A DNA stretch of 64,000 nt, taken from NCBI GenBank assembly GCA_947561395.2, contig OX387185.1, forward strand, positions 35,878,213 through 35,942,212. The letters are read 5' to 3'. The stretch comes from Buxus sempervirens (Eukaryota > Streptophyta > Magnoliopsida > Buxales > Buxaceae). Both the position numbers and the translations under genes were made by a program. How positions within the stretch are numbered: the first letter of the stretch is position 1; every line of letters starts with the position of its first letter. Under the pieces are notes generated by a model. That model did no database searches and was not told where the DNA came from. It was given only the letters and a program-made list of their open reading frames with translations. Shown here in pieces: positions 2,003 to 61,959 of the stretch.

Positions 2003-2248
2003 GTATCCGGTCATGTATGCCGGATACACTGCCTATCCTTCATATCCGGATTTTAAGGCTGGATACGTGAAGATATTCGCGCGAGATTCGCGCCACTTGG
2101 CCGACAAATTCGCGGCGGCATTAAATTTCGAAATGATTAAGTCATGTATCCGGCCTGAGTTGCCGGATACAAGGGGAGGCCAGTGTATCCGGACTTGAAG
2201 TCCGGATACGAAGAGGCCTTAGTGTATCCGGCCTGAGTTGCCGGATAC
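2003..2248. repeat. Palindrome array in Y LTR (39-bp period)
   Basis: 25-bp palindromes begin at 2003 and 2042, and again at 2146, 2185 and 2224, 39 bp apart within each group. Arms are GTATCCGG plus one variable base, with a 7-nt centre. The ninth arm base pairs with its partner in units 2146 (C-G), 2185 (A-T) and 2224 (C-G). The array stops 12 bp before the TATA box at 2260. Confidence 0.9.
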
Positions 2249-2267: not shown

Positions 2268-3275
2268 GCCAACAGCAGCTCATATCCGAGGTTGGCATTA
2301 TTCTTTATTGTTCTCCAGCCCTTCTCCCCCGCCTGCTCCCTTACGAACTCCACTTCTTTTAGCCCCTTTGCCTCCCTACTTCACCCTAAGACCACCCAAC
2401 CTTGGTCTTCTTCTTCTTATTCATCTTCTCCATTAAGACAAGTGGAGACTCTGTTGCTGTTGTTGAGAGGAGGTGGAGTTCCCAGCTGTTCATTTGCGGC
2501 AAAGGAGTCACACACCTCCCAGGAGGAGCTAAGGAGCACAAGGTAAGGTTTCTAGACATGTTCAGTATAACATATATTAAAATTAGGTTTTTCCGTCATC
2601 TTTTCTCCTGTCTTCCCTTTTGCTTAGCATGAACACTTGCATGGTGGTGCAACCATTTTTTTTACCACCTTTCTCATAGCATGAATGCGTCCACCAGCAT
2701 GAGGGTCACGTAGGCTTTGTTAAGGAAGCATGGGGGTCTTATTTTAGCATGTTTTAATCCCTTTTAGCTACTGTCCATAGATTTACATTAAGTAGCTTCC
2801 AAAAGGAGCATGTTCCTTCTTAATATAATCTGTCGTACCCCCTTTTAAATCCCCCTCCTCTCCCCTTCGTCTGGCTTTCGTTAAGGTCAAGCTTGGATTC
2901 GTGAGTCTAAACATCGGGGTGATGCGTGGGAAATGCATGCTAGGCCATACTTTATCTCCTCATTCATGAACATACTTACCAGTGCTGATTTTAGTTATCA
3001 TACACATGCATGCTGGCTGTTCATGTTCCCACCTTGTTGATGTGTATAAATTGCCCCATTGAAATACTGATTTGTACAAGCATGATCCCCTCCCCCATTA
3101 CTTTGCATTCCTTTGCTTTTGCTGGAAAGATCCAAAGGGGAGAAGCCAAATGGGGCTTCTCCCAAATCTGAACCAAAGTGAGCCCTCACAGGGGCCCACA
3201 CAGCCCATAGAAACCTTGGAGAAACCCCTAGAAACACCCCGAATGGCAAAAAAGCCCAAAAAGGCCATTCCAGGG

Positions 3276-3417
3276 TGATCCGGTAACTCAGGCCGGATCA
3301 CCTGAGGCCTTAGCATATCCGGCCATCAAGGCCGGATAACCCATAGCCACTGTGTATCCGGCCACTCTGGCCGGATCACCTGCAGACCATGTGTATCCGG
3401 CCTGAGTTGCCGGATAC
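3276..3417. repeat. Second palindrome array in Y LTR (39-bp period)
   Basis: Four 25-bp palindromes start at 3276, 3315, 3354 and 3393, all exactly 39 bp apart. The first has the variant arm TGATCCGG in both halves (CCGGATCA on the other side), a matched change. The corresponding array in the reverse Y copy is at 44937-45039. Confidence 0.9.
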
Positions 3418-4643
3418 ACACGGAAAGTGTATTTTGCACATTGTTTGATCCTTGACCGAATTTTTGAGTGATTTGAACCAAAACCACTGAACCAACAGGG
3501 TTTCCGGGCCACCTGGAAACCCAAGATGGGACTTGGACCAACCAGTCCAACTTGGATCACTAGTGGGCCTTCCAACGGGGCCCACCAAGCCCAATGAACC
3601 TGAAGGCATGCTATTAAATAACCTAAGCTAAATGAACCATGTGTACCGGGCGGGCCAAACCCAATGCGGCCCACCCGCGCCTTGTAATGTGAATGAACGC
3701 ATAAATTGCTTGGTTTCACCGAGACCAAGGGCTAGGGCCTGTTGGGCCCGCCAAAGCCCGCCAACCGAACCGAGTTAGAGTACAAGCCCCAAACTCCAAG
3801 GAGCTGGGCTTTCAAGGCCCACAGCCTGGATCATGGGCCCCAAGCCCAATGATCAGCCCACTTTGGCAAACTAAAGAAGATAAAAGATGCAAAATCACTT
3901 GGCCACCACGTGGGCCCACCTAAGGGGCCCACAAAAGAATCCGGCCCACCACTTGCATGAAAACCACTTAAGCTCCAAACTTGAACCTTAATAAAAACCA
4001 ACTCATTATCCAAGGCCCACAGGGCCTCCTAGGGTTGGACCGAGGCCCACCAAGGGCACACGGGCTTACTTGAGCCCAACAAGGACACCGTGGGCCTTCC
4101 AACGGGGCCCACCCAATCAGACTCATACAAATTAAGTTGAGCAAAGATAAAATCAACTAAAGGGACCCACACCACTCAGGTGGTCCCGCCAAGACCTAAC
4201 TTAATTACCTACTGGATTAGGAATCGGGTGAGAACCAAGCAAGAGAGAGCTGACTCAAACCAGGGAACCCACGGGACCCGTCACCCGACGGGGTGGACTG
4301 GGGTGTCTACGGACTTCCCCAGACCACAACCGAGAACCGACTTAGAATCTCAAGCCGCAGACCAAAGGCCTTAATAGACAAGATAAGGCACCCAGGTGTC
4401 CGCCTGCACCCCATCAGGCGGTGGCGACTCCGAATCACCCCGTGCCACGTTTCCCACGCGCGCACACCAGGGGCATGGTTGGTCTAAGGGATATGCCAAA
4501 ATCTTCCAATTGAGTTAAAAAAGGATTTAATGTAAATCAAACCACAGAGCATAAACAAGAGGATTCAAATCTCCCAGAGAGAGATTTGGGTATAGATAAG
4601 GCTCAGAAATCGAAAAATGATGAATTCGCTAAAAAAAACCCGT

Positions 4644-4720: not shown

Positions 4721-4775
4721 ATTGCATGTTTGACCAAATTTTACACTTTTTTGACCTGTTTCTACACAGGCAATA

Positions 4776-4857
4776 CTTATTTACATGTAATATCATTTAA
4801 GTAAATGTCCTCGTATTTTTTAATCTCCATTTACTTAAGATATTACATGTAAATAAG
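4776..4857. repeat. 82-bp near-perfect hairpin inside a Tat LTR
   Basis: Left and right arms of about 30 nt (starting CTTATTTACATGTAATATC) are inverted around a short AT-rich loop. An 82-bp copy is at 40552-40633 in the LTR shared by the two large elements. It resembles a miniature inverted-repeat element or an inverted duplication fixed in this LTR subfamily. Confidence 0.8.
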
Positions 4858-5484
4858 CAAACACCCCCCATTTCAATCCATTAAAAATAGTTCTAGACCC
4901 AAATTCCAAGTGAATAAAAAGTCAACTTTCCAGTTCAAGGATAAATTCCGGTTTTTCAGGTCCGGTAAAAAGATTCAACATGTTCATACCAAGGTATTCG
5001 TCAAGATTTAAAATCTCAAAAATTCATTTATGCAATAACATGGTTAAAAACCTGATTACCGGGAAAAATTATCTTGAAATCTTACCTTAAAAAATATTTT
5101 ATTTTTTGAGGTCAAAAGTCAACAAAATTCAACTGGAAAAGTTTGAATTTGTGCAAAAGATTGAATTTGGGCCTTTTCCTTTGTGGTTTTGGATTCAAAT
5201 GGGTTAAGGATTTCAAACCCCATGCTAAGAATTGAAAATTCCAATAAAATATTTCTCTCCTTCAAGATTTATCAAAAATCATGCAATTTTGGGGTGTCTA
5301 CAGGGGCTCCATATTTGAGTGATTGTTGTCATACGTGAGAAGGAGCTAGAGCCCAGAGAAGAAGTGTTCCAGCCTTGATAGTGTAGACACCCCAAATTGC
5401 ACAGTAAAAATGATCAATAATTGGCAAAAAATCATTATCTCCTTTGAAACCAACACAGAATTTGAGAAATGTGCATTTCTTCTT

Positions 5485-5626
5485 GTATTCGAAAACTTAG
5501 GTCGAATACAAGCATACCTCTTTATATCTCACATAAGTTGTCGGATACAAGTGGACCTTAATGTATCCGGCAACATATGCCAGATACGTATAGGTGCTCG
5601 TGTATTTGACCTGACATGTCGGATAC
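5485..5626. repeat. Decayed palindrome array (39-bp period)
   Basis: Units start at 5485, 5524, 5563 and 5602, 39 bp apart. Unit 1 has GTATTCGA matched by TCGAATAC, i.e. both arms changed together from the usual GTATCCGG. The other units are imperfect. Confidence 0.8.
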
Positions 5627-11478: not shown

Positions 11479-13376
11479 TCAAAGACGAGACATAACAACT
11501 TCTTCATAGGGTTGATCTTGTCGGTTGGGAAGGTACTGCTGCCTCTTCCCCTGGACTGATCCTTGGCTTGAAGGGTCATCAGAGCCTGAGTCAGAGCCCG
11601 AGAATGCCTTAGCCCATGCCCTTAACTGGAACTTTTGAACCTTACCTGTGGAGGTCTTTGGGAGCTCATCAATGAACATAACTTTTCTAGGAACCATGAA
11701 GTGGGGAAGATTTGCCCGGCAGAAAGCAGTAATATCTCTTTCTTTCACTTCCTTCTTGTCTTCCAACGAGCCCCTCTTAAGGGTAACGAAAGCACAAGGT
11801 GTCTCTCCCCAGCGATGATGCGGCATTGCCACAACTGCAGCTTCTAACACCCTTGGATACTTATACAACACAGTCTCCACCTCCACACTGCTAATGTTCT
11901 CTCCACCTGATATGATCACGTCCTTGGATCTGTCCTTGATTTCCAAATACCCATCTGGGTGTATCACCCCAACATCGCCGGTGAGAAACCACCCATCCTT
12001 GAATGCTTTGGATGTAGCCTCACTGTCCTTGAAGTAGCCCTTCATGATACTGCTTCCCCGGAGGACAATTTCGCCGAGGGAGCGTCCGTCCCGGGGAACA
12101 CTAACCATTGTGTTCAAGTCCTTGGCGTCCACATCCGCAAGGGAAAGTACGCTTATGCCTTGTCTAGCCTTCAAATTTGCCTTGTTGCTCTGTGGCAAGT
12201 GATCCCACTTTGCCTGCCACTCACACACTAGTGCAGGCCCTGTAGCCTCAGTGAGTCCATAAGCATGTGTAACATGGAAACCCAGTTGTTCAATTTTCAC
12301 AAGTAGTGGCGCAGGTGGTGGTGCTCCACCAGTTAATACCCTCACCGGGGAGGATATTGGTCGTGGTTCATCGGGTTTTGCCTCAAGAAGGATGTTGAAG
12401 ATGATAGGAGCGCAGCACATGTGCGTCACCTTGTGCTCCACTATGGCTCTATACATGTCAGCTGCACAGGTATTGCGGATGCACACATTAGTGCCACCCC
12501 GGGCTGCTACCCCCCATGTGAAGGTCCACCCGTTGCAGTGGAACATGGGAAGGGACCACAGGTAAATTGGTTCAGTCCCCATGTCCCATTGGAGGGTGAG
12601 GCTGAGGGTGCTCAAGAATGCACCTCTGTGGCTGTAGACAACACCTTTAGGTGCTGAAGTGGTGCCTGATGTGTAATTCAGTGCGATCGGATCCCATTCG
12701 TCGTCGAGCCGGCATGGAACGAATCTGGGGTTGCCATTAAAGACCAGTTGCTCATACTCTAGCTCCCCTAGGCGAATCCCTGTTGGAGCATCAATGTCAT
12801 CAATGACAATAACCAAGGGAATGGATGATTCTGCTACAAGAGTCTCGCTTGGATCCGCAAAGAGTAACCTTAGAGCTTCACTTGCTAATGGCACATATTG
12901 GTAGTCCACAAAGAAAACCTTGGCTTCGGAGTGCTTGAGGATCGTTGCAACGTTTTTAGCATCTAGCCTGGTGTTAATGGTGTTGAGCACAGCTCCAGCC
13001 ATTGGCACTGCAAAGTGCATTTCATACAGTGCTGGAACGTTTGGTGCAAGTACTGAGACCTGTGATTTGAGAACATCGCAAATTTATAAGTTCAAACATA
13101 GAAGGGTTGAAGGACTATAACTTTGTATGATAAAACCATGTAGAATTTAAAAGAAAGTGGTGGACTACTTATGCCTACCACGTTGTTCTTGACAATATTA
13201 AGTGATCTAAGCGATGAAGCAAGGCGACAGCAGCGCTCATATGTTTTCTTCCATGTGAAACGGGTCTCACCATAGATGACTGAGGTGCGGTCTGCATAAC
13301 ACGATGCAGCTCGCTGCAAAAATGTGACCGGCGTAAGGGGTACGTAGTTTGCATCACATTTCAGAAGCTTATCCAT
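11479..13376 (-). CDS. Peroxisomal-type acyl-activating enzyme (AMP-forming acyl-CoA synthetase)
   Basis: Two exons on the minus strand: 13376-13179 (66 codons) and 13059-11479. The 119-bp intron (13178-13060) has GT and CAG borders, phase 0, and restores the family-conserved stretch VVSVLAPNVPALYEMHF. The product is 592 residues. The AMP/P-loop motif YTSGTTSAPKG is at about 195-206, the adenylate-binding region (TGDVGVIHPDGYLEIKDRSKD) follows, and the catalytic lysine of PKTSTGK is at about 539. The family joins a carboxylic acid to CoA through an acyl-adenylate; plant clade members act on short-chain, benzoic or cinnamic acids, and the substrate here cannot be read off. The last three residues SRL form a PTS1 peroxisomal signal, after a Gly/Ser/Asp-rich tail of about 46 residues. 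The frame is intact and looks functional. It is the only clear host gene in the window. Confidence 0.93.
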
Positions 13377-15667: not shown

Positions 15668-15706
<39 letters not shown>

Positions 15707-24807: not shown

Positions 24808-24897
24808 TGTAGACACCCCAAATTGCACAAACAATCATCAAAAATCATTATCTCCTCGAAAGCCAGCACAGAAATTGAAGAAAATAAACTTTTACCG

Positions 24898-25039
24898 GTA
24901 TCCGGTACCTCAGGCCGGATACAAGTACTCCTCTGTGTATCCGGTGGAACATACCGGATACAAGTGAGCCTTAGTGTATCCGGTATCATCGACCGGATAC
25001 CTTAAGGCCCTTGTGTATCCGGTCTGATATACCGGATAC
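24898..25039. repeat. Palindrome array in 5' LTR, four units, 39-bp period
   Basis: Units start at 24898, 24937, 24976 and 25015. Each is 25 bp with GTATCCGG arms, a 7-nt centre and 14 nt to the next unit. In units 2-4 the ninth arm base is T paired with A; in most Y units it is C paired with G. The array lies about 170 bp upstream of the TATA box. Confidence 0.95.
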
Positions 25040-25206
25040 ATAAGTTTTGCTCAAAATTAGGGTTTTCCGAGAACTTTTCACTTTTACCATCATGTCCTTC
25101 ATTAAATGAAGGGAAATCTCGGAAATAGCCTTAGGGTTAAGGTTGGTGGACTATAAACATTATGTTGTGTCTACCATTCTCACCAACCCTAACCCTAGCC
25201 TTTGCC

Positions 25207-25321
25207 TATAAATAGGAGGCTCCTCCTTAAGCAAATGGCAACCAACTCTTGTTTTGAATTCTCGCAAAGAAGAACTCTAAGAGAAGAAGGAAATCGCTGC
25301 GGGAGTGCTTCCAGAATCCAG
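25207..25321 (+). promoter_or_regulatory. LTR promoter, first exon and 5' splice site
   Basis: TATAAATA at 25207-25214 predicts transcription from about 25238. A 5' splice-site match (CCAG/GTAAGC) is at 25321/25322. The site recurs at the same distance after TATA in the LTRs at 5923, 41100 and, reverse, near 19420, so it is conserved. An ATG at 25235 would open 29 codons ending exactly at the donor in phase 0, but it lies at or just before the predicted start of transcription. Confidence 0.6.
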
Positions 25322-27094
25322 GTAAGCCTCAAACCTCTCTTTTATTTTCTGTATTTACATTCCTAGATCTAGATCTCTTCTTCTACCTTTCTGTAGTGTC
25401 AAGCCTTCTTTGTATGTGAAAACCCTTCCCCGGCTCAAAGTATCTCGAGACTCCCCCTAGCCGTAAAACGTGGAGGCGGGATCTAGGAGAAACGAGACTG
25501 GGGATTGACCTTAGTACTAGAACCTATGTAGAATAAGGCCTTTTGATTGATTGTAAACCGTTTCATATTCAAAGTACCCTTGATTATCTTGAAGAACCGT
25601 GTTTAACGGGGAGAGAGAATAGAGGGAAACGATAATGGAACGGAACCCTAGGTTGTTTTAGAACCTTATTTTGATGCATGCTATGTTGTTCTATTGATCT
25701 TATATGGTTTCTCACATTTGCACATACATAGCACCATTTTGACGGGATAGGCTCATATTTGGGGTTTATTACATTCATTGGGATAAATCTCAAATAAATG
25801 GCCTCAATCAATTCTGGAGTGTTTTCAAGTGATTTTTTAAGGTTTTGGATTAATCTCACACGAATCTCACACACTTTATCACAGTTTTGAGTTGGTTTTA
25901 CTCAAAAAGGGCCTAACTGGACAGCACCTGTACCCTGACTTCGGACGCTCATAACTTCATCGTCCGGATGAATTTTGGAGCGATTATAGAACCATGGGAA
26001 ATTTGAGCCTGTCTAGTTTATGTCCACCAAATTTCATAAATTTCCATCAAACGGATTTTTGACACCTCTCTGTCGAAGTTAAGTGGACAGTTCAGGTTCA
26101 AATACAGAACTTGTCACTTCGACAGAGCGCCATGTGTTCGGTTTAAGTCCGATTCGAGTGATTTTTGTTTCTGAGTACTCCTTTATGAGTCTATTTTCAA
26201 ATCCAGTTGGTTTCATAATTTTTTTGACTCCATTTGAATTATGGGTAGCCGATTTACTCAGAATTGCTCAATGACACTTTTCTGGGTAAATCTGTGATCT
26301 TCGAGGCTTGTTCGGGAGACCACCCAAGGCACATCCAAAGGGATTTTTGTATGAGGCTAGTTTTTATTGAAAGATGGCCATACAGACTTCAATCACACCA
26401 AATTTCGTGGATTTTTATGGAGTGGATTTTTCTATGCAATTTCCCAAAGTTGCCCACTCATCACTTTTAAAAATCCCTACCAGCAACTTCAAAGGAGCAT
26501 AATTCCTAGGATTTTTATCGGAATGAAGTGAAATTTTGCATGAGACTCTTATTTACTGTAATCTTTCAAATGAATTTAGTTTGGTTCAATTTAAAATTGT
26601 ATTTGAATGATTTCAAGACAAATGGCATTACTTTTCACCGAATTTTCCGGATTTGATTCAACTTGGTTTTTGAATAACTTGTGCTTTGATTTACATCTTT
26701 TGAGATATTCCAGAAATGATATTGACATAAGAGAGGATCTAGAATCCATTTAGATCTTCATGTGGAAATATCATACATTTGTCCTTTTTCAAGGTTTTCT
26801 ATGATTTTAGCAAGCTTTCTTATTTTTGCATGAACATACACTTGGCAACCAGTTTGTGTGGATGAATGGGGGTGCCTAACACCTTCCCCCGTTCATAATC
26901 TAATCCCCTTACCCATCTCTGGATTTGATTTTCAAGTAGGGTTTTTTTTACCCTAGAATTGATGATTTTTGATGATTTTGGTGTCCATTCTCACCTCAAA
27001 ATTATGAATGGTGGCGACTCTCCCATTTTTATTTCGAGCCCCGTGTGTTGACGGAGGGATGATCATTCCGGTGATTTTTTCCATGTCTCACAAC

Positions 27095-27112
27095 TGGCGA
27101 CTCTGCTGGGGA
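27095..27112 (+). promoter_or_regulatory. Primer-binding site of Tat copy 1
   Basis: TGGCGACTCTGCTGGGGA starts two bases after the LTR end. It is nearly complementary to the 3' end of plant tRNA-Arg, the primer described for Ogre/Tat elements (from memory, about two mismatches). A shorter copy, TGGCGACTCT, occurs 83 bp upstream inside the LTR (27012-27021). Confidence 0.85.
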
Positions 27113-28463
27113 CTTGTGGATTTAAGCCATTTTGTGTATATTCATGCTTTTTCTTTTGAATGCTTGTTATTTTGATTACTTTGCTTGTGTATATTTGAAT
27201 CTCAAATTTGATTTGTATGACTAGAGAATTCACATGGATAAAGGCATAAGCATGTTGCTTGATTTTTGTTGAAAAGAAAACCCATATTGTGATATGACTT
27301 GGCTATATTATGTGATAGCATGTGTTATTTTGGGGTTTGAAGGCCATGAGCTAAAAAAATGTACAATATTTGAAATCTGGAAATATTGTGTGTATTTTGG
27401 GCATTCAAGCATGTTTGCCATGAATAAAGTTTTTTTTGTGCTTAATGTTTGTATGATGCCATGCCTTTGATTTAGGGGTATAGGAGGACTTGATTTGAGC
27501 ATGAAAGCAAGAAAAAAAATCTGGAAATTTAGTGCATGTTTTGGGCATTTTCAAGCATGTTTTACCTCATTGAAACACTTTTGGTATCATGTCAAGTAGT
27601 GCTAAATTTATAGGCCTCAATTTGGGTAGAAATGGTACACTTTGAGCATGAAAAAAAAGCATGAAAATCTGGAATTTTAGGGGATGCTTTTGGGTTTCAA
27701 GCATGCTTCCATGGTTTAATTGTTGTTTGCACCAAATAACATGTTTTTATACCACTTTTTGGGCATGTAATATTTTTGTGCATATTTGGTTGCTTTGGCT
27801 CTTGCTTGCTTGTATTTAGCTTATTTATATTGTCATATGTGCCTTGGCTTGAAATTAAATGCATGGCTACGAAAAAGAGTGGCAAGGGGCTGGGACGTTG
27901 TGAATGTTACCACAATTTTAAATTGCACTTGAGCACAATAAACACTTTGCACAACCTACCCTTTTACCTATAGGAAGTTGAACCATGAATGTGTGTAGCT
28001 TGGCGCACTGAGGTCATGACTTCGGAAAGCGAAAGTGAAAACATTTACCTTAGAATTTGAGTCAATGATGTGATGACAATGGGATCTGTGATTCGATTCC
28101 GGGCATCACTAGACTTGAATTCTAAGTTGCCAATTAAGCCAAAACCCAAAAACCATACGCTTGAAGGTGGAGGAACACGTTTTCAGCTAAAAGTACACAA
28201 TTGCGTTTGGGGAATTGGGTGTAAATGTGAGAAGGCCGTTTGCATGTTCTACAGGCCAAGGTACACTATGAATGCCATATCGAAGGTAATACAAGGTGGC
28301 AAGGTAAAGCCATTTTCTTTTCATGAATTTGGGGATTCTGCAAGTATGATGTCCAAGCCCAATTTGGCGCAAGTTTTGAAGGTCAAATTAAGGTGAACAT
28401 TAAGTGGGAATTAAAAAAAACCTAATCTGGTGAAAAAATGAGTCAAAAATGGCCATTTCGGCA

Positions 28464-28605
28464 TTAACCGGCAACTCAGGCCGGTTAAGAAGAACTTTGT
28501 TCATATCCGGTATATATCACCGGATACAAAGGCTTATGCGTGTATCCGGTCATTGTGGCCGGATACAGTAAGATATGTCCTTATCCGGCCATTAATACCG
28601 CATAC
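28464..28605. repeat. Palindrome array in the leader of copy 1 (39-bp period)
   Basis: Units start at 28464, 28503, 28542 and 28581. The first has TTAACCGGC matched by GCCGGTTAA, both arms altered together from the canonical form; the last is imperfect. The array lies between the primer-binding site and the hairpin repeats, outside the LTR. Confidence 0.95.
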
Positions 28606-28881
28606 ATGCAGAAAGTGAATAAATTGGCTTTTTCAGCCCGAATTTTCAGAATAAAATGCCTAAACACTGTGGATAATCCTTAGGCACCCTAAAGAAAATA
28701 TAAAAATGTCAAAAAAAAATAAAAAATAAAAAAAAATATTCCTTTAAGATTAAACATAATGTGGAAGCTTAAAGAACGAGCTAAGGTGTCACATTTTTTT
28801 ATATCAATTCAATTCAAACATGCGTCAATCAAGCTTTAGAACTTGAAAATTGAGAAAATTCAGCAAATTTCAAAAATAAAA

Positions 28882-29882
28882 CCCTTGGTTGGTCTCCTTT
28901 TTACCAATCAAGTCAAAAAAAAAGTGGGACCTCTGGAAGCCCTAGAATATTCCATGAACCCTTGATTGGTCTCCTTTTTACCAATCAAATCAAATCAAAA
29001 ATTGGGACCTTTGGAAGCCCTAAAATATTCCATAAAAACCCTTGGTTGGTCTCCTTTTTACCAATCAAGTCAAAAAAAAGTGGGACCTCTGGAAGCCCTA
29101 GAATATTCCATGAACCCTTGATTGGTCTCATTTTTACCAATCAAATCAAATCAAAAATTGGGACCTTTGGAAGCCCTAAAATATTCCATAAAAACCCTTG
29201 GTTGGTCTCCATTTTACCAATCAAGTCAAAAAAAAGTGGGACCTCTGGAAGCCCTAGAATATTCCATGAACCCTTGATTGGTCTCCTTTTTACCAATCAA
29301 ATCAAATCAAAAAAAAAGTGGGACCTCTGGAAGCCCTAGAATATTCCATAAAAACCCTTGGTTGGTCACCTTTTTACCAATCAAGTCCAAAAAAAGTGGG
29401 ACCTCTGGAAGCCCTAAAATATTCCATTAACCCTTGGTTGGTGTTCTTTTTACCAATCAAATCAAAAATTGGGACCTTTGGAAGCCCTAGAATATTCCAT
29501 TAACCCTTGGTTGGTGTTCTTTTTACCAATCAAATCAAAACATTTGTGGGACACTTGGAAGCCCTAGAATATTCCAAGAAACCTTTGGTTGGTTATTTTT
29601 ATCAATCAAATCAAAACATTTGTGGGACACTTGGAAGCCCTAGAATATTCCAAGAAACCTTTGGTTGGTTATTTTTATCAATCAAATCAAAACATTTGTG
29701 GGACGCTTGGAAGCCCTAGAATATTCCATGAAAACCTTGGTTGGTTATTTTTATCAATCAAATCAAAAAAAAATGGGACCTTTGGAAGCCCTAAAATGTT
29801 CCATAAAAACCCTTGGTTGGTCCTTTTCGTACCAATCAAATCAAAAATCCGCGGGACCCTTGGAAGCCCTAAAATATTCCAA
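28882..29882 (+). repeat. Leader tandem repeats, 13 units of about 76 bp
   Basis: Thirteen copies of a unit containing GGAAGCCCTA(G/A)AATATTCC. Most units contain an inverted repeat, best as TTGATTGGT...ACCAATCAA, which would fold as a hairpin in the RNA. Some units are longer because of A-tract variation. The open frames in this region are by-products of the repeat: the 76-bp period cycles through all frames. Confidence 0.95.
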
Positions 29883-40675: not shown

Positions 40676-40817
40676 GTATCCGGCAACTCAGGCCGGATAC
40701 AAGTGTCCTTCTTTGTATCCGGTGGAAAATGCCGGATACAAGTGGACCTCAATGTATCCGGTATCATAGACCGGATACATTAAGGTACTTGTGTATCCGG
40801 CCTGACATGCCGGATAC
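40676..40817. repeat. Palindrome array in the middle LTR (39-bp period)
   Basis: Units start at 40676, 40715, 40754 and 40793. Ninth-base pairs: C-G (unit 1), T-G mismatch (unit 2), T-A (unit 3), C-G (unit 4). It aligns unit by unit with 24898-25039. Confidence 0.95.
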
Positions 40818-43800: not shown

Positions 43801-44936
43801 CGAGGTCGTGACTTCGGAAAGCGAAAGTGAAAACATTTACCTTAGAATTTGAGTCAATGATGTGATGACAATGGGTGTGCGCACCCGATTTCGGTCTCAC
43901 TGTGAGGCGCACGCAAAACGATGCGTGCCTCGGGATTTGTTTGGAGTCGCCACTGCCTGATGGGGTGCAGGCAGACACCTGGGTGCCTAAGTTCTTCTAA
44001 GGCTTGGTCTGCGGCTTGAGATTCTAAGTAGGTTCTCGGTTGCGGTCTGGAGAAGTCCATAGACACCCCAGTCCACCCTGTCAAGTGACGGGTCCCATAA
44101 GTTTCCCTGGTTTGAGTCAACTCTGGTCTCTTACTCACCCGATTCCTATTCCAGAATGTAATTTGATTAAGTCTGGCGGGACCGCCAAAGTGGTGTGGGT
44201 CCCTTTACTTGGTTTTATCTTTCTTAGCTTAAAGTGGTGTGAGCCTGATTGGGCGGGCCCCGTTGGAAGGCCCGCGGATTCCTTGGTGGGCTTGGTTAAG
44301 CCCACATGTCCCTTGGTGGGCCTCAGTCTGGCCTGAGAGGCCCTTTGGGCTTCGGTTCAAGTGAATTGATTTTATTTAAATTCCAAGTTTGATTAAATTT
44401 GATTTCCATGCCAAAGATGAGTCTGGGTTGCTCTGTGGGCCCGTGGGTGGGCCACACAGTGGGTTGCCAAGTGATTTCAGTTTATCTTGATTAGCCTTTG
44501 CAAAAGTGGGCCAGGCATTGGGCTTGGGGCCCTTTACCTGGGCTTGGGCTTGAAAGCCCAAGGCTTCTAGAGTTAGGGTTTTGAAACCCTACACTTGTTT
44601 GGTTTAATGGGCTTAGTGGGCCCGACAGGCCCTGCCCGTGGTCTCGGCCAAACCACAATCTACTTTAGACATGCATGGCCCAAACAGGGCTTGGGTGGGC
44701 CTCAAATGGTCTGGCCCACTCAAATATTTTATTTATCTTAGTTAAGCAAAATAAATTGGTCGGGCTTGGTGGGCCCCGTTGGAAGGCCCACCGGAAATCA
44801 ATTTGGACCGGGTCGGTCCATGGCCCATCTTGGGTTTCCGGGTGACCCGGAAACCCTTCTGATTCACTCAGATCGATCAAACACATCAAGAAATCAACAC
44901 AAGCTCATAAAAATGGCAAAATGGTATTTTGGCAGT

Positions 44937-45039
44937 GTGGCCGGCCTGAGATGCCGGTTACACACAGGGTTCTGTGTATCCGGCATCTTTAGCCGGCTAC
45001 ACATGAGCTTCTGTTGATCCGGCCTAAGTTGCCGGATCA
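44937..45039. repeat. Palindrome array in nested Y LTR
   Basis: Units start at 44937, 44976 and 45015, 39 bp apart. Unit 3 has TGATCCGGC matched by GCCGGATCA, as in the other Y copy. Confidence 0.85.
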
Positions 45040-45468
45040 ACCTACAGAAGCCCTTTTTTTGGGTTTTTCGCATTGGGGTTGGTTTTCTGGACCTTCTAGG
45101 GTGCTCTAGGGGTTACGTGGGCTCCTGTGTGAGCCCACAGAGGTTCTGGAGATGAGGGATCACCTCATTTCAATCTCCTTTGAGATTCTTACAATAAAGC
45201 CAGACAGGGAGATGCATGCTTCTAATGGTGTGTGAAGGCCTGCCCGTGTGCATGTGCTAGAAAGAGGACAATATCATGTTGTCCATAAAATTAGCTAGGG
45301 GATATAGCAAAAGAGGATGGGGAGCATACTTTCCAAGGCATATGCATGAAATACATGACCTAGATTATCTAACCAAAGCTTATGCATTAAGTCCATAACT
45401 TCATGCTCAGCACACATGCAAAATCACTTGAATAAAACCATATAAAGAAGGGATTGAGGGGGGTTATA

Positions 45469-48400
45469 TGTAAAATCCCAAATTTTAATGGAATTAAAAT
45501 TTATTATTTTAGTAACTAAATAAGGCCAAATTTGGAAAATTATGTAGAATCGGGGATTGAGAGGGTTCGTTCAAGGTTTTGGGTGAATCAAATTAGGAAA
45601 ACTTTATTTATAAAGTTGAGGAAATATTATTTAAATTTTTCTTGGGAGTTTTAAGTTGGCTGAAGATGTGGCATTTATGGTTGAGTCGATCACATAAGTT
45701 GCTGATGTAGGGATTCTGGTAGAAGGGCATAGCATAGGATCATGTTTAAGTCAGCAACTTGGCGGCATGTATAAAAAAAGCTTAGTTTTGGGTTCAGCAG
45801 TGTTTGGTTAGTTTGTGGCACGATCAATTTGAAGGTCGGAAAGATCAGAGGAGGAGCTAGGGTGGAGAGGCTCAGATCTGAATATTTTGGAGTGATTAGA
45901 GAGAATTCAATATGATCGTTCACCTCTGTTAGTTTGTAATTTCAGAACTTTGCGACAGCAGTAAGTGATTCATCCGTGGGCTGTTGATTCAACAAGTTTA
46001 GATCGATTTGAGTAAGTAGATATTGAATTATGGTATTTTCATTTGAAGTCTAAAGCTAATTCGAATTAATTCTCAGATCTGTAATGATCTGAGCAAACTG
46101 AGATTTTTGAAGGAAAAAGTGTGCGGCAGAGTGGATTTTGGCTACTGAAATGGTGGTTATGTGATTGAGAGAGAGAGTTAGGCTACGAATGATCTTCAGC
46201 AATGTAAGTAGCACAACCTGATTTCTTTTTGGATGATTTGAAACTGTTATGTGATTTTGTTAAAGTATAGATCTGCCGAACCCTCTGTTTTGATGATAAT
46301 ATCGCTTAGAACTTTGTAGGATGTTCATGTGTTTTATTACAATGGTATGCATGCTAATTGAGTAATATTAGACTGAGAATTATGCTGGATTTGGTTTGAG
46401 CATGAAGCATTAGATAAGTTAGGAACAAATTCTAGTTGCGGCAAGTCGTGGAATGTGAAAAAGGGAGGGCGCCTAGGATGGCCTAGAATGGCCGACCTAG
46501 GAAGGTAGGCGCTAGTGCAAATATGGAGAGGGCCTAGGATTGCCTAGGATGGCCAACCTAGGAGAGCTAGGCGCTCATGCAACTTTGCTTAGCCATGTTC
46601 GGCTACCTTCTCAAAAGCAATATTTTAATGAATAAATGATTAAAACCTGTCTTATAATACCTAAATAGATGTTAGAAGTAATTTGTAAAGAGTTTTAGCT
46701 GAGGTTTCCATGCCATTTTATTATAGAAGAATTAAAGTGTAAGATTGTGAAGGAATTGTTGAAATCAGCCAGATTATTTGCAGTTATTATTAAGTGTTAT
46801 TAAAAATCCACCCTGGGAATTAATTTGGGAACTTAATTAGGGATGAACTGAAGTGTTTTCGGAAAATTGAAGATGCTGAAATGGTGGTATACTTCAGGTT
46901 CCACCTAATGGGATCAGAATTTGGTATTAAATATAAATCTAAATCTTTGAGTATAGAAATTCTAGAGTAAAGAATACATGAAAGTCTTTTGGGTAAGTTC
47001 AGACTTTATTTGGGTTACTTTGGGAGGAATTAGGAGGTTCTGATCTGTGGTTAGCTTCCAAGCTAGTAAGTAGCTTAGAAATGGAAAGTAATAGAATGCA
47101 TTTTAATGAATTGGAAGTGTTAAAAGAAGGCATTGAGGGCTTAGGTTAAATAAGAATAAAGTAAGTATAAATTATATAGGGAAGCTACTGTTTAAGCTTA
47201 ATAACAGTGGAACCAATATGAAATTATTAAAAGGTTTAAATCCTGATTTTAGCATTTGGTATTATTGGCATAATCTAACTCTTAAGGTGGTTTTATAAAA
47301 GTTAATGGAAAGAACTTGTAAAGTAAATATAAATGATAATTTGATTTTTGGAGGGTGTGCCAAGCCTCTAGAAATTACAGAAATTAATACTATTGTGTGA
47401 GGGCAAGGGAAGGCTTATTTTATAAAGCCAAATCAAGATGGAATAAGAGGGTGAACTAAAGTTAATATGTATAGAAAGAGCTACTGTTTGGGCTCAAGTT
47501 AAATAAATTAGGTCTGAATTTAGTCATCACATTTAGTTTTAGTTTTTAACATTTGGATTTGCCGGTTTAACCGAAATTGAGCAATTTCACCAAACTTTGA
47601 CTATAAAAAGGGAATTTTCTGCAATACTTTGAAAAAGGACTTAAAGTCAAATTATTTTGGATAAATGTGGTTATTTGGTTTTCTCCACGTACTCGAATGA
47701 TGTTTCGGGATTGTTGATGGATTGATGGTTATCTTACCTCCGTGTATCTCGGGGATGCCCCGTGTATCTCGGGATGCTGTTGCCTCCGTGTATCTCGGAG
47801 ATGCCCCGTGTACTCGGGATGATTTGATTGAGATTGAGATGAGTTGTGCTTGCTAGATTTCACGGTTGGTTTTGGTTTTAGAGTCTAGTGGGCATAGCTC
47901 GATATGGATCCATGTTAGGAGCTAGTTAGTGGAAAGGATTGTTCTTTGCTAGTTGTAATACTTTGTTCACGCACGCGTTTCCACTGTGTACTCAGTGAGG
48001 CCTGATCGTGTACTCGGCTGGCTGCGGCTATCCCTCATTTTATCGTGTACTCGGACTGTGACTGGATTAGTACATGCCAACCCATCACTGTACTGGGTGG
48101 GTTCTCCCGCAATAAGACGATGATCGTGTACTCGGCATATCGCACCTAAGCCGGGAGGTGGCATAGTGAACACTGGCATTACCTAGTTAAAAACAGTCTT
48201 ATTTCATGAGTCCTGCAGTGACTTATCAACTGTTGATTTGATGTTACCTATATATTTGTTGAACTGGATTATTTCTGTATTTTATACTGATTGATTGGAT
48301 TACTGTTGAATTACTCGGATTATTGGGAACTGAGGTGTTATCGCTACTGTTGCATGATTTACAACTGTATCATATTTTAGAACTGATGAACTGTATTTGA

Positions 48401-48685
48401 GCATGCATGTGCTGCTTACTGGGATATTCGTATCTCATTCTTTTCCGTTTTGTTTTGTTTTCAGATTCTAGTAAGGATGGCACCAGCGGGTATATGCTTG
48501 GTTCATGTGAGTTAGCCTTGGGTTATAGTATTTTTATTGATGAGCTTGGGTTATAGTGCACTCTGATTATCTAGTTATTGTTTTATTCATGTTTTCCTTC
48601 ACTCTGATTTGCTATCCTGGGTTATATATTAACCTTCGGTGATAAGTTACGGTTTCTCTACGTAACTTGGATCCGGGGCATTACA
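45469..48685 (+). mobile_element. X-family LTR nested in the Y LTR
   Basis: 3217 bp, TGTAAAATCCC to GGATCCGGGGCATTACA, flanked by TTATA and TTAAA (one mismatch, probable duplication). No coding frame or primer site. It is the most complete X copy: its 3' half matches 17866-18124 and 19940-20622 in reverse. Probably a solo LTR of a large Gypsy element; lineage (Del/Tekay-like) inferred only from the end sequences. Confidence 0.75.
47738..48140 (+). repeat. CGTGTACTCGG-type repeats in the X LTR
   Basis: The motif CGTGTA(C/T)CTCGG or close variants recurs about eight times, first as a tight tandem (47740-47825) and then dispersed to 48135. The reversed X copy shows matching AGTACACGG-type repeats at 20220-20620. 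Confidence 0.75.
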
Positions 48686-49160
48686 TTAAACATGGGGTAC
48701 ATTAGATGGATGACCAAAATGGGGGAACATGCTCCCCCATGCAAACAAGATAACCAAGATCAGCCAGGTGAGACATGCTTAGACAACAAAAATTATGCCA
48801 TGCTCAAGAGATGCTCATTTTAATATATGTTGAATAAATCATGTCTAGGAACAATACCTTGGGGTTTTGAAACCCCTTTGAAGCATGTAGCCTTCTCCTT
48901 GGAGCAAGAACAGGTGCTGGAGCCCTCCCTTTACACACCAACAACAGGTACTCTCCTTCTTGGTGGGATGAAGATGGAGAAGAAGAAGAAAAGGAGGAAG
49001 GGGGAGCTTTAAGATGATGCTTGGGGGGTTATAGGACCAAAGGGGGGTAGGAAGGAGGAGTTTTCGGAGCTGACACCGTGGGGGAAGAAAGGGGAGAACA
49101 GCCAAAAAGAAGCCAACCCCGGAAATGAGCTGCTGGTTTGCTATTTATAGAAAACTTAAT

Positions 49161-49406
49161 GTATCCGGCAACTCAGGCCGGATACACTAAGGCCTCCCAT
49201 TATCCGGCCTTCAAGTCCGGATACACTAAGGCTCCTTTGTATCCGGACTTGAAGTCCGGATACAAAACATAATCATTTGAAAATTAAATGCCGCCGCGAA
49301 TTTGTCGGGCGATCGGCGCGGATCTCGCACGAAAATCTTCTTGTATCCGGCCTTCAAGACCGGTCATGAAGGGTAGCTGGTGTATCTGATATATTTGACC
49401 GGATAC
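49161..49406. repeat. Palindrome arrays next to the TATA box of nested Y LTR
   Basis: Units start at 49161, 49200 and 49239 and, after a gap, at 49343 and 49382; spacing is 39 bp within each group. This mirrors 2003-2248. The TATA box on the minus strand is at 49141-49150. Confidence 0.9.
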
Positions 49407-50355
49407 AAATCGAAAAATTACGGATTTGCCCTTTGACTTGACCGATTCGACCGATTTGACCGATTTGACACTTTTTGATATCTACGGATCGCCCGTACGA
49501 ATTTTTTATATTTAAGATTTAGTCCCTGAGATATTTTGCTGCGTCAGTCGCCACGTGTGCAGTTCTTGCGCCACGTGTGCAGTTTCCGGCTTTGCTACCC
49601 GGAAACTTCGATAGATCATATCTCCTTCATCCGAACTCCGATTTGAGCAAACTCAATTGCGTTGAACTCATATCGGAGCCCTCCATTTAATGACATAGGG
49701 CTAAACACTTGGTACGGGCTTCGAGGAAAAGTCAACTTTCGGCTCTCCCTTAAGTTTGACCGGCCCACAGAACCCTCATCAGGACTCTGATTCCTGCAAA
49801 CTCAGTTGCGTTGGACTCGTGTCGGGATTCCCTATCCACTGAGATAGAGCAAGGCGGCCAATTATCCTTTGATCAAAAGGTCAAATTTCAACCCCTTAGG
49901 GTTTGACTTTCTATTTAGGGTTTGCATTTTCGGCTCTTTCGGGAGCGCAAAAATGAGGTGCTTACAATGGGATCTGTGATTCGATTCCGGGCATCACTAG
50001 ACTTGAATTCTAAGTTGCCAATTAAGCCAAAACCCAAAAACCATACGCTTGAAGGTGGAGGAACACGTTTTCAGCTAAAAGTACACAATTGCGTTTGGGG
50101 AATTGGGTGTAAATGTGGGAAGGCCGTTTGCATGTTTTACAGGCCAAGGTATAATGTGAATACCATATTGAATGAAGGTAATACAAGGTGGTAAGGTAAA
50201 GCCATGTTCTTTTCATGAATGTATGAATTGTGACAAGTATGATGTCCAAGCCCAATCTGGGGCAAGTTTTGAGGGTCAAGTTAAGGTGAACATCAAGTGG
50301 GAATGAAAAAAACCTAATCTGGTGAAAAAATGAGTCAAAAATGGCCATTTCGGCA

Positions 50356-50497
50356 TTTACCGGCAACTCAGGCCGGTTAAGAACCATTCCCTTCATATCC
50401 GGTATGAAGTACCGGATACAAAGGCTTATGCATGTATCCGGTTATTGTTACCGGATACAATAAGCCATAGCCTTATCCAGTACTTCAGGCCGGATAC
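50356..50497. repeat. Palindrome array in the leader of copy 2
   Basis: Units start at 50356, 50395, 50434 and 50473, 39 bp apart, in register with 28464-28605 of copy 1. Individual centres have changed between copies while arms and spacing are kept. Confidence 0.95.
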
Positions 50498-50810
50498 ATT
50501 CAAGAAATGCACAAATTGGCTTTTCAGCCCGAATTTTAAAATAAAGTGCCTAAAACACTGTGGATAATCCTTAGGCACTCCGAAAAGAACATAAAAATGT
50601 TCCAAAAATACAAAATCAAAAACAAACAAAAAAAGACAAAAAAAATAAAATAAAATAAAATATTCTTTCAAGATTTAACCTAATTTCGAAACTCAAAGGA
50701 GGAACCAAGGTGTCATTTTTTTTATACCGACTCAACTCAAACATGTGTCAGTCAAACTTTTGAACTTGAAAACAGAGAAAATTCAGCAAATTTGAAAAAA
50801 AAAAAAAAAG

Positions 50811-51640
50811 AAACCTTTGGTTGGTTATTTTTACCAATCAAATCAAAACATTTGTGGGACACTTGGAAGCCCTAGAATATTCCATGAAAACCTTGGTTGG
50901 TTATTTTTATCAATCAAATCAAAACATTTGTGGGACACTTGGAAGCCCTAGAATATTCCAAGAAACCTTTGGTTGGTTATTTTTACCAATCAAATCAAAA
51001 CATTTGTGGGACACTTGGAAGCCCTAGAATATTCCAAGAAACCTTTGGTTGGTTATTTTTACCAATCAAATCAAAACATTTGTAGGACACTTGGAAGCCC
51101 TAGAATATTCCAAGAAACCTTTGGTTGGTTATTTTTACCAATCAAATCAAAACATTTGTGGGACACTTGGAAGCCCTAGAATATTCCAAGAAACCTTTGG
51201 TTGGTTATTTTTATCAATCAAATCAAAACATTTGTGGGACACTTGGAAGCCCTAGAATATTCCAAGAAACCTTTGGTTGGTTATTTTTATCAATCAAATC
51301 AAAACATTTGTGGGACACTTGGAAGCCCTAGAATATTCCAAGAAACCTTTGGTTGGTTATTTTTATCAATCAAATCAAAACATGTGTGGGACGCTTGGAA
51401 GCCCTAGAATATTCCATGAAAACCTTGGTTGGTTATTTTTATCAATCAAATCAAAAAAATGGGACCTTTGGAAGCCCTAGAATATTCCATGAAAACCTTG
51501 GATGGTTATTTTTATCAATCAAATAAAAAAAAAGTGGGACCTCTTGGAAGCCCCAGAATATTCCAAGAAACCTTTGATTGGTTATTTTTATCAATCAAAT
51601 CGAAACATTTGCGGGACCCTTGGAAGCCCTAGAATATTCC
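50811..51640 (+). repeat. Leader tandem repeats of copy 2, 11 units of 76 bp
   Basis: Eleven units with an almost exact 76-bp period, more uniform than in copy 1 and differing in number (11 against 13). Each contains TTGGTTGGT...ACCAATCAA-type inverted arms and GGAAGCCCTAGAATATTCC. Confidence 0.95.
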
Positions 51641-51765
51641 AACACACCAAAAAAAATATATAAGAAAAACAAAAACAAAAAAAAATAAATAAATCCAGAC
51701 TTGTGTTCACCTAACCCATTTAGCTACATTTATAGGTGTACGACTCAGATTAAATGGGAGCTGAC

Positions 51766-59933: not shown

Positions 59934-61688
59934 CTAATCTCTGTCTCCTACCCGCTCCTCAAGCTCCCGAATCCGAGCTGCCTGAGATGCGATAACCCCA
60001 GAAGCCCCCTCTGCAGCGAGATCACTCAAGAAGGAAATGACCTCATCTGAAAGAGTTTGCCTAATCCTCATGCTCCTAAGGCTGGCTAAAGCATCCTGAT
60101 GCTTCTGCCGCAGTGCTCGGACTTCAAGACAGCGGGCCTGCCTATTTTCCTCAAGGTGCTTCTCCATAGCCAGACGGCGAGATACCTGTTCTACAAGTTG
60201 CCTTTCCATATCAAGGCCTCGTATCCTAAGCTCCTGGGCCTCTCGTACCCATATTTGCTGAAGTCGCTTATGGGAGGCCCTCTCAGACTCTAAAATATCC
60301 TCATAAGTAGGAGCCAAGACTGCAGGAGGATCTTCGGGTACTGGTGCTTGACTCTGTATCTGCTCCTTGATCCAAAAGAGATAATCTTTCACATGGGCTT
60401 CTGAGAAGACTGGGCCACGCATGAAGCGAACATATGACCACTCCCTCATCAACCAGGCATTCAGCTTCATGGTATCTAGAGAAAGGGGCCCAAGATGATC
60501 CTCATACCCACTTGGGATGATAATCCCCTGGATCGCTCGGAACTGACGAAGGACCCGCAAAGGAAGATAAAGCACTGCATGTCTCAGGCCAGCCAGAATC
60601 ATAAAGTAGAGGTCTCGGAAGCTAATCACTGTCTCCGCATTGGGCTGATAAGTACCAGGCCATCTCACCTGGTCATCCTGAAGGGAGCCCAAGAAAGTGA
60701 ACCAGCCCTATTTGCCCCCTGGAATATCGGGACACCCCCGGTTGCTCATCAAGATGGGGACTTTCAAGCCCGGGAAGAAGTGTCGATTGATTTCCTTAAT
60801 CTGACTCAAATGATCAAGTAGCCAAAGCTGCAAAGGAGAAGAGATATATCAGTACATTGTAAAAGAAAAAATGCAAAAAAGCAAGAAAAAAGCAACAAAA
60901 AAAAAGAAAGCAAGAAGAAAGCAAAAGAAAAAAAGCAAAAAAGAAAGCAAAAAAGCAAAAAAGAAAAAAAACGTTTTTACCTGCAGGATCTGTGCACATG
61001 CTAGGAAGCGTTTAGACTTCCTATTGTAGCAATCAGTCAAGGCCTGATACATCCCAGCCAAAATCATAGGGGCCAACCTCTCCCGCTCCCTAACCTGGCA
61101 TAGCATTGAAATCAAGGCCAAATCCACCTCATCATCATCTCGTGGGAAAAGCAGCTAGTTGACCACTATCAGGGTCAAGGCGTTGAACTGGGCCTCCTTA
61201 TTTTCCCCCCTCAAAAGCTTCTCAGTCAAAAAAGCCTTAGATAGGGTCAAAAGGGTGTCAGAATCCCCCAAGTCCTTCTTCCCTATGCCCAAGAATGTAG
61301 AAGCTTCCTTTTTGTAACTGGGCCTAAGAGGTGGATTCACCACCTTCTCATCAAACCTCAAGCCCAGGATGGTTTCCACCTCCTCAATGGTTGGGGTCAT
61401 TTCATGGGTCCCAAAACAGAAAAGGTTGAGGTCGGGTACCCAATGACCAATCATGGCCTCTATAATCTCCCACTTGAAGGGAACCTTGGGAATAAGCAGG
61501 GTATGGCCTAGATTAGTAGAATCCCATCTTCTTTCCTCATCTAGGGTCATAGAGTTAACCCATCTTGTGTAAAAGGAATCCATAGGGTTGTACCTAGTGA
61601 GATTTGGGGGTTTTGATCTAAAAGGTTGTTTTGCAGGGGAGGCAGTATGGACAGACAATGGCAGGGCAGAAGAAGATCCGGATTCCAT
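59934..61688 (-). pseudogene. Antisense PMD-type (MAIN-like) gene A, copy 2
   Basis: Two exons: 61688-60981 (236 codons) and 60827-59934 (298 codons with stop). The intron 60980-60828 has CAG/GTAAAA and TTTGCAG borders, phase 0, pyrimidine-rich. Exon 1 encodes the plant mobile domain: RYNPMDSFYTRWVNSMTLDE, VPFKWEIIEAMIGHWVPDLN, FGTHEMTPTIEEVETILGL, then a MILAGMYQALTDCY block. Exon 2 encodes AVLYLPLRVLRQF, EWSYVRFMRGPVF, and a long charged helix rich in R, E, Q (coiled coil). Two TAG stops (61155-61157 and 60708-60710) break it; the second is CAG in copy 1. PMD proteins (MAIN/MAIL1) are nuclear silencing factors, and PMD or gene23-like frames occur antisense in Tat elements; the role here is unknown. 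Confidence 0.85.
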
Positions 61689-61796
61689 TGGATTTTATGG
61701 GAGCAAGTTAGAACTCAAGGGGAGGAAGAAAAAGGCGAAAAAGGGGGTTTCTAAACTCAAAAACTCGTAAAAAATGCTCAAATCCCGAGGCTGGTT

Positions 61797-61817: not shown

Positions 61818-61959
61818 GTATCCGGTAACTCAGACCGGATACAAAAGGCTTTATTAATATCCGGTTAAGTATACCGGATACAAAGGGGATCATGTGTATC
61901 CGGTATGTGATACCGAATACAAAGAGCAATCAATGTATCCAGTATATCAGACCGGATAC
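61818..61959. repeat. Palindrome array upstream of antisense gene A
   Basis: Units start at 61818, 61857, 61896 and 61935, 39 bp apart. All carry a T-A pair at the ninth arm position, as in the LTR arrays; unit 3 ends GAATAC and unit 4 starts GTATCCAG, single-arm decays. Confidence 0.95.

What the first reader, a model, noticed from the sequence alone, without database searches (positions are those of the whole stretch)
24898..25039. Four-unit array of 25-bp palindromes at an exact 39-bp period in the LTR
Units start at 24898, 24937, 24976 and 25015. Each is two 9-bp inverted arms (GTATCCGG plus one base) around a 7-nt centre that varies freely. Across about ten arrays in the window the 39-bp step is kept exactly while centres and linkers change. 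That is unusual for ordinary tandem repeats and suggests selection for helical phasing, dimeric binding sites or RNA hairpins.
Basis: seen in the sequence. Interest (0 to 1): 0.9.

Follow-up and report, generated by a model that had tools for sequence, protein, structure and literature searches.

The report
Self-recognition DNA arrays in giant retrotransposons
A plant's giant jumping genes carry a short mirror-image DNA motif at near-fixed 39-letter steps beside their gene switches, in thousands of copies, and the two halves of the motif have changed in step over time, as expected if one DNA-binding protein, perhaps made by the jumping gene itself, reads them all.

Summary
The array is real and exact. 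It lies in the U3 of a 2.3-kb LTR, 167 bp before a TATA box, in a Tat/Ogre-like element; a well-preserved neighbour copy is 22.5 kb. The genome (676.5 Mb) holds 20,444 exact units, the reversed control none. Arrays also lie beside other predicted promoters: a second LTR family (11 bp before TATA), antisense plant-mobile-domain (PMD) gene 1 (12 bp) and gene 2; and in the 5' leader.

Arms are constrained, centres are not (23/272 against 30/119 differences). The linker is 14 nt in 11,447 of 13,009 matches.

New here: half-sites of an LTR array shift in step along the LTR tree between GTCGGATAC and GCCGGATAC. Genome-wide both arms are changed in 6,516 units, one in 3,432. The same mutation type elsewhere in the arm looks independent (813 single, 6 double, about 8 expected). 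This favours binding sites of one co-evolving DNA-binding protein over RNA hairpins or a plain repeat. The antisense PMD proteins are candidates (dN/dS 0.08-0.15), unproven. Closest analogue: VANC of VANDAL transposons.

The parts
24808..27092 (+). LTR of element A (TGTAGACACC...TCTCACA) that holds the finding
   Evidence: LTR start motif and 97.5% match to a downstream LTR; LTR end from comparison of LTR pairs
24898..25039 (.). The reported array A1: four 25-bp palindromic units at step 39 in U3
25207..25214 (+). Predicted TATA box (TATAAATA) of the LTR promoter, 167 bp after the array
27095..27113 (+). Putative primer binding site TGGCGACTCTGCTGGGGAC just after the LTR (tRNA not tested)
28464..28605 (.). 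Array A2, four units, in the 5' leader after the LTR; unit 1 arms TTAACCGG/CCGGTTAA
30063..37377 (+). gag, RT-RNase H, second RNase H (RVT_3) and integrase of element A
   Evidence: Pfam
40676..40817 (.). Array A1 of the next LTR (starts 40105)
50356..50497 (.). Array A2 of the second element
5485..5626 (.). Array A1 of a third, more diverged A-type LTR (starts 5382); 6 of 8 half-sites of the GTCGG type
2003..2248 (+). Array C1 (2+3 units with a 104-bp gap) in a second LTR family, ending 11 bp before a predicted TATA
3276..3417 (+). Array C2 inside the same LTR; unit 1 arms TGATCCGG/CCGGATCA
49161..49406 (-). Array C1 of the inverted C-type solo LTR (43876-49966, TSD ATGGG), ending 11 bp before TATA on the minus strand
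44937..45039 (-). Array C2 of the same solo LTR
61818..61959 (-). Array P1, 12 bp before the predicted TATA box (ACTATAAATGC) of the first antisense PMD gene
59937..61694 (-). Antisense gene 1 (pieces with DUF7745 and PMD similarity; one internal stop in this copy)
   Evidence: an uninterrupted exon in another copy hits PMD at 54.3 bits
62156..64000 (-). Antisense gene 2 (only a weak PMD match in this copy, E 0.0085), continuing past the window end towards a two-unit array at L015:2381
   Evidence: another copy hits PMD at 51.1 bits

Best explanation
The array is a cluster of binding sites for a sequence-specific DNA-binding protein that reads a half-site of about nine bases, N[C/T]CGGATAC with G, A or T first in most, as inverted pairs, and whose neighbouring pairs need a set geometry (39-bp repeat). 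One shared factor reads the arrays beside the predicted promoters of these Tat/Ogre-like elements (LTR, two antisense genes), of a second LTR family whose internal genes I did not see, and in the 5' leader, and so controls the element's own transcription: activation, autoregulation or removal of silencing. Shown: arm constraint, near-fixed spacing, position beside TATA-like sequences, and in-step turnover of half-sites. Inferred: that a protein binds, that it is dimeric, and that it acts on transcription. Most speculative: that the factor is one of the element's two antisense PMD proteins.
For: Arms differ at 23/272 sites between homologous arrays, centres 30/119, linkers 69/238, Fisher P 2e-5 and 2e-9 (five of six pairings summed, one left out so as not to count the array 5485 comparison twice). 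20,444 exact units in the genome, control 0. Linker N14 in 11,447 of 13,009 matches with N0-30. TATA 155-168 bp after A1 arrays (one array, L048, reads 79 because a stray hit was counted as its last unit), 11 bp after 5 of 5 C1 arrays, 12 bp after 9 of 9 P1 arrays. Of 41 A1 arrays, position 8 is A in all half-sites in 7, G in all in 21, mixed in 13, and these states follow a tree of the flanks. GTCGG arms also occur, wholly or in part, in C1 (L059, L064), P1-like (L063) and A2-like (L054) arrays. Genome: both arms changed 6,516, one arm 3,432 against about 12,000 expected if independent. Control position 5/21, same CCGG context and same transition: 813 single, 6 double, about 8 expected (my arithmetic). 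Both antisense PMD genes are under purifying selection: dN/dS 0.08-0.15 in five comparisons.
Against: No binding was shown; promoters are predicted from TATA-like words only. The sampled loci are not random: the window's neighbourhood plus the first listed matches on one contig, chosen for one or the other arm type. Subfamily descent inflates counts of both-arms-changed units. Position 9 is coupled within units (193 of 256 against 169.5 dealt, 0 of 2000 deals), position 4 (249 against 241, 4 of 2000) and position 1 (182 against 173, 12 of 2000) less so, and a few multi-base compensated arm changes exist; a half-site reading does not predict these. The A2 and C2 arrays have no nearby promoter that I could see, the P1-like array L063 has no TATAAA within 300 bp, and a second copy of the gene-2 array lacks the TATA-like word. 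The PMD exons hit no DNA-binding family in Pfam and the model failed (mean pLDDT 37.1).
Confidence: 0.6

Rival explanations
1. RNA (or single-stranded cDNA) hairpins: each unit forms a 9-bp stem with a 7-nt loop in the genomic RNA, for packaging, export, stability or template switching.
For: The array sites of the A-type element would all lie within its genomic RNA (inference from the layout). Twelve compensated arm cells in the window against 2.1 in shuffles, maximum 9; 29 against 6.6, maximum 15, in 129 distinct units. Position 9 is coupled within units. One centre is inverted between orthologous units (L031 against L037/L039). Folding z-score -9.4.
Against: At position 5/21 doubles equal the independent expectation, 6 against about 8. 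Arms are alike across units, and the folded RNA of the array pairs arms of different units. A hairpin needs neither the same pair in all units and families nor a fixed 14-nt linker. Many arrays sit just upstream of TATA boxes. Several compensated cells come from few events inherited by homologous copies.
Confidence: 0.18
2. Hairpin-templated mutation: palindromes are kept by strand switching inside cruciforms or during reverse transcription, with no function needed.
For: Multi-base compensated changes in single units and one centre inversion.
Against: It makes the arms of one unit match each other but does not keep eight half-sites and several array lineages on the same sequence, nor the 39-bp step; position 5/21 shows no correction. 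It may still explain the position-9 coupling alongside the main reading.
Confidence: 0.08
3. Binding array for a host transcription factor only (an enhancer borrowed by the LTR), with no element-encoded partner. This is a form of the main reading, not exclusive of it.
For: LTR enhancers made of short repeated host-factor sites are common (general knowledge, recalled); arrays sit beside predicted promoters.
Against: A host factor would be expected to be conserved, so the in-step shift of half-sites in several array lineages fits it less well; the same array marks the antisense promoters too.
Confidence: 0.3
4. Methylation decay: the GTCGG arms are only old GCCGG arms after C-to-T change at methylated CCG sites.
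For: GTCGG arrays sit on the more diverged LTRs.
Against: Position 5/21 has the same CCGG context and the same transition, yet 6 doubles and 813 singles against 6,516 and 3,432.
Confidence: 0.04

Closest known systems
VANC anti-silencing system of VANDAL (Mutator-like) transposons, Arabidopsis (PMC5735166, PMC10398659: passages read)
   Same: Short motifs in tandem arrays in non-coding DNA of the element; motif units evolve together; motif versions differ between related element groups; element-encoded accessory protein.
   Different: DNA transposon, not LTR element; binding and demethylation were shown there and not here; here the motif is an inverted pair at a near-fixed 39-bp step beside predicted promoters, and the accessory proteins are PMD-like.
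Retand/Tat elements with antisense accessory ORFs (PMC11963269: abstract and passages read; the Grande gene with its own promoter seen only as a title in its reference list)
   Same: Giant Tat-type elements, long pol-3'LTR region, antisense ORFs, suspected regulatory role.
   Different: That survey reports the TRP28 domain and family-specific tandem repeats; here the antisense genes are PMD-like, no TRP28 match was found in the pieces scanned, and the repeats are palindromic arrays at predicted promoters.
PMD-bearing Ty3/gypsy elements (PMC9289625: passages read)
   Same: PMD domain encoded in Gypsy elements of several plants; Arabidopsis PMD proteins MAIN and MAIL1 act in gene regulation and TE silencing.
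   Different: No cis-target is mentioned in the passages read.
Tnt1/Tto1 U3 repeats (recalled, not looked up)
   Same: Short repeated or palindromic boxes in U3 acting as enhancers.
   Different: Ty1/copia, few sites, host factors, no in-step half-site turnover known to me.

Membership tests
Tat/Ogre-type Ty3/gypsy element | Second RNase H (RVT_3 type) after RT-RNase H | tested here: met
   RT_RNaseH, then RVT_3, then integrase in one ORF (window 56528-58936; L023:4970-8581); that this marks the Tat family is from a passage of PMC9289625
Tat/Ogre-type Ty3/gypsy element | Antisense ORFs between pol and 3' LTR | tested here: met
   PMD matches at L024:382-1167 and 3124-4098 on the minus strand
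Tat/Ogre-type Ty3/gypsy element | Place in an RT phylogeny; PBS matching tRNA-Arg | not tested
   A PBS-like sequence was seen; no tRNA comparison and no RT tree were made
Retand with TRP28 accessory protein | TRP28 (PF04195) in an antisense ORF | tested here: not met
   0 of 10 antisense pieces hit PF04195 at E 0.1 (6, 4); the pieces do not cover whole genes
VANC-type self-recognition system | Short motif arrays in non-coding DNA of the element whose units change together | tested here: met
VANC-type self-recognition system | Accessory protein of the VANC family | tested here: inconclusive
   The only antisense hits above a Pfam cut-off are PMD and DUF7745; no direct comparison with VANC was made
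VANC-type self-recognition system | Protein binds the motif and removes DNA methylation | not testable with these tools
   needs binding and methylation assays
RNA hairpin array | Compensated changes above independence at stem positions | tested here: inconclusive
   Not at 5/21 (6 against about 8); yes at 9 and, from few events, at 1, 2 and 4
Ordinary tandem repeat | Arms and centres diverge alike | tested here: not met

The most novel reading that the evidence does not exclude
Giant LTR retrotransposons encode, on their antisense strand, a PMD-family protein that binds promoter-side palindromic arrays as an ordered lattice and lifts silencing or switches on the element, and the two have co-evolved through specificity shifts (GTCGGATAC, GCCGGATAC, then ACCGGATAC or TCCGGATAC) that the genome's many copies record: a class I counterpart of VANC.
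Probability: 0.25. Interest if true: 0.9.

Novelty: new variant of a known kind. Interest (0 to 1): 0.74.

Why it matters
What the antisense genes of Tat/Retand elements do is an open question stated in print (PMC11963269, passages read). If these arrays are their targets, the question becomes testable with one 25-bp probe. It would also show that LTR retrotransposons, the bulk of many plant genomes, can carry their own sequence-specific control systems, with a record of specificity change kept in thousands of copies.

Tried and rejected
Simple helical phasing: 39 bp is 3.71 turns. Chance: base shuffles give 0-3 window units and the reversed genome pattern gives 0. Slippage-only tandem repeat: arms against linker. 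Methylation decay as the source of GTCGG arms: position 5/21 control. A strand bias of G-T mismatches as a sign of RNA: by hand count it pointed opposite ways at positions 8 and 9, so I dropped it.

Led nowhere: viral contigs pattern (0 matches); homologues of the antisense proteins (1 hit at E 1.6e-8 for one, with only the 8000 candidates that share most words scored; none at E<=1e-8 among 1163 candidates for the other); PDB sequence search (0 at E<=1); PMD model (mean pLDDT 37.1, so no fold search). PMC6911290 (passages) deals with palindromes at insertion targets, not with this. The 8-mers occur in 674 papers, of which I saw 20 listed by title; no listed title concerns plant LTR elements. 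The centre-length spectrum GTATCCGGN{0,30}CCGGATAC did not complete; in 264 kb, exact half-sites up to 30 apart show offset 17 forty times, offset 4 six times (overlapped readings) and offset 30 once.

Novelty in print rests on searches only.

Full report
OBSERVATION. The four units stand at 24898, 24937, 24976 and 25015 exactly as described. A window scan with at most 4 mismatches in 16 arm bases gives 41 hits; 20 shuffles give 0-3. I used 41 units in 12 segments (two isolated hits dropped, two units added by register and later found by a looser scan). All 29 within-segment steps are 39 bp; the C-type LTR has a 104-bp gap between two segments in both copies.

WHERE IT IS. The window is plant DNA: in a search that listed 120 of 8000 scored proteins, the best-scoring relatives of a gene at 11479-13020 are 78% (Tetracentron) and 77% (Nelumbo, named AAE11-like) identical; the species is not known to me. 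Much of the rest is nested LTR elements. They have gag, RT, RNase H, a second RNase H (RVT_3) and integrase, the Tat/Ogre layout. Two LTR comparisons give an LTR of about 2.3 kb. The finding's LTR is 24808-27092; the array is in U3, 167 bp before TATAAATA at 25207. A young neighbouring copy spans 22.5 kb with 99.0% LTR identity; 4 of 5 bases of its flanking duplication match.

OTHER ARRAY SITES. (a) A second LTR family (C), shown to be an LTR by 5-bp duplications ATGGG around a solo copy at 43876-49966, has arrays ending 11 bp before TATA in 5 of 5 C1 arrays seen; I saw no C element with internal genes. (b) An array ends 12 bp before the TATA of a first antisense gene in 9 of 9 P1 arrays; a P1-like array recognised by its centre word alone (L063) has no TATAAA within 300 bp. 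(c) A two-unit array lies next to a TATA-like word (TTATAAG, minus strand) upstream of a second antisense gene in the window's element (L015:2381); in another copy the array is kept and that word is not. (d) Arrays A2 lie in the 5' leader, beyond the LTR end. (e) C2 arrays lie inside the C LTR without a visible promoter. All promoters are predictions. Both antisense genes hit the plant mobile domain above Pfam's cut-off in the young copy (54.3 and 51.1 bits) and are under purifying selection (dN/dS 0.08-0.15 in five comparisons; RT-integrase 0.03-0.08 in four). A more diverged element nearby also has antisense relatives of both (47-63% and, over 75 residues, 51%).

ABUNDANCE. GTATCCGGN9CCGGATAC has 20,444 exact matches in 676.5 Mb and none when read backwards.

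CONSTRAINT. Across homologous arrays the eight arm bases differ at 23/272, the centre at 30/119, the linker at 69/238 and base 9 at 16/34 (sum of five of six pairings). Between units of one array arms differ at 13%, centres at 63% and linkers at 63%. In the 24898/40676 pair the arms are 0/64 although the array lies in the most diverged 150-bp window of the aligned stretch. In the old array 5485 arms differ at 14/64, so decay does occur.

SPACING. With exact half-sites, 11,447 of 13,009 pairs have a 14-nt linker; of the 16 listed places that depart from it, 14 are 27-nt readings of the same arrays and 2 are 13 nt. In the sample 129 of 140 steps are 39 and 7 are 38. LTR alignments show 0.05-0.06 gap events per substitution. 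With linkers and centres that diverged I would expect, by rough arithmetic, one to two length changes per pair of neighbouring units; few are seen.

TURNOVER IN STEP. A second arm type, GTATCCGA...TCGGATAC, has 6,516 exact units; units with one arm of each type number 1,710 + 1,722, against about 12,000 if arms were independent. Of 41 A1 arrays, 7 have A in all half-sites at position 8, 21 have G in all and 13 are mixed. On a tree of up to 420 bp after the array, 8 mixed arrays (4-7 of 8 half-sites A) sit with the all-A group, four lie on the path between the groups (L048 5, L050 4, L052 2, L036 1) and one (L030, 1) is in the all-G group. The centre words of units 1 and 4 (AACTCAG, CTGATAT) persist through the change in most of these, so at least these units were not replaced; unit 2 has another word after it, and the youngest group has new words in units 1-3. 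Position 9 is C..G in 22 of 26 units of all-A arrays; in all-G arrays it is T..A 41, A..A 13, A..T 11, T..G 6, C..G 5 and others 5. The tree was rooted at the midpoint, so direction is inferred from the compact, young all-G group. The loci were picked from matches to one or the other arm type, so proportions are not genome frequencies. C1, P1-like and A2-like arrays with GTCGG arms, wholly or in part, exist as well.

CONTROL. Position 5/21 is in the same CCGG context with the same transition, and has 813 single (410 + 403) and 6 double changes; independence predicts about 8 (my arithmetic). So arms are not generally compensated, and methylation decay does not explain position 8.

AGAINST MY READING. 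Compensated cells are above shuffles (12 against 2.1; 29 against 6.6), position 9 is coupled within units even when dealt within arrays, positions 4 and 1 less so (which does not remove shared ancestry of units), and one centre is inverted between orthologous units. Pairing is below the dealt value at centre positions 10 and 12. These point to hairpin or cruciform intermediates at some time, as a mutational route or a second function. RNA folding is strong (z -9.4) but pairs arms of different units.

MECHANISM. Most likely a dimeric or oligomeric DNA-binding protein covers the array and contacts neighbours at a set distance. Half-sites across the linker are 22 bp apart centre to centre (2.1 turns, about one face), those within a unit 17 bp (1.6 turns), and units 39 bp (3.7 turns). 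Position next to predicted promoters suggests control of transcription; I cannot tell activation from anti-silencing or autorepression. The antisense PMD proteins are candidates because they travel with the arrays, are constrained and have arrays at their own predicted promoters; no DNA-binding family was recognised and the model failed.

LITERATURE. VANC (PMC5735166, PMC10398659, passages read) is the closest analogue. Retand antisense ORFs with TRP28 (PMC11963269, abstract and passages read) are the closest structural relative. Searches listed no report of such arrays; this is not proof of absence.

Noticed in passing
window 28878-29881 and 50808-51642: 76-bp tandem repeats (about 13 and 11 copies) in the 5' leader of both elements; the first also scores with a 156-bp period.
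   Followed up: no
window 53446-54933: A 495-aa ORF with a C-terminal G-patch domain in the second element.
   Followed up: no
window 43876-49966: C-type solo LTR with TSD ATGGG, itself hit by another insertion at about 45470-48690 that carries its own short repeats (CGTGTATCTCGGGG) at 47740.
   Followed up: partly
window 24808-61700: LTR-internal-LTR-internal tandem arrangement: one LTR (from 40105) is shared by two element copies, and the first copy lacks most of its antisense region.
   Followed up: partly
window 4764-5302: Inverted piece of an A-type U3 next to a third A LTR; the A-type LTRs at 24808 and 40105 do not align in their first part, suggesting U3 exchange.
   Followed up: no
L024:6178-6200: In the 3' LTR of a young element the first unit is cut short by a deletion between TCCGGATAC repeats; its 5' LTR keeps it.
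   Followed up: no
L031 against L037/L039, first unit: The centre is inverted (TACTCAA to TTGAGTA) between orthologous units with nearly the same flanks.
   Followed up: partly
L010 and L012 arrays (positions 52225 and 74884 of the joined 264 kb), L024:1291, L028:569, L032:570: Five of nine P1 arrays, and two A1 arrays (L025, L026), have one 38-bp step, a tolerated exception to 39.
   Followed up: no
L044: An A1 array with old-type centre words on a young-type flank, as if arrays were exchanged between LTRs.
   Followed up: no
window 15670-15703: A run of 34 C.
   Followed up: no
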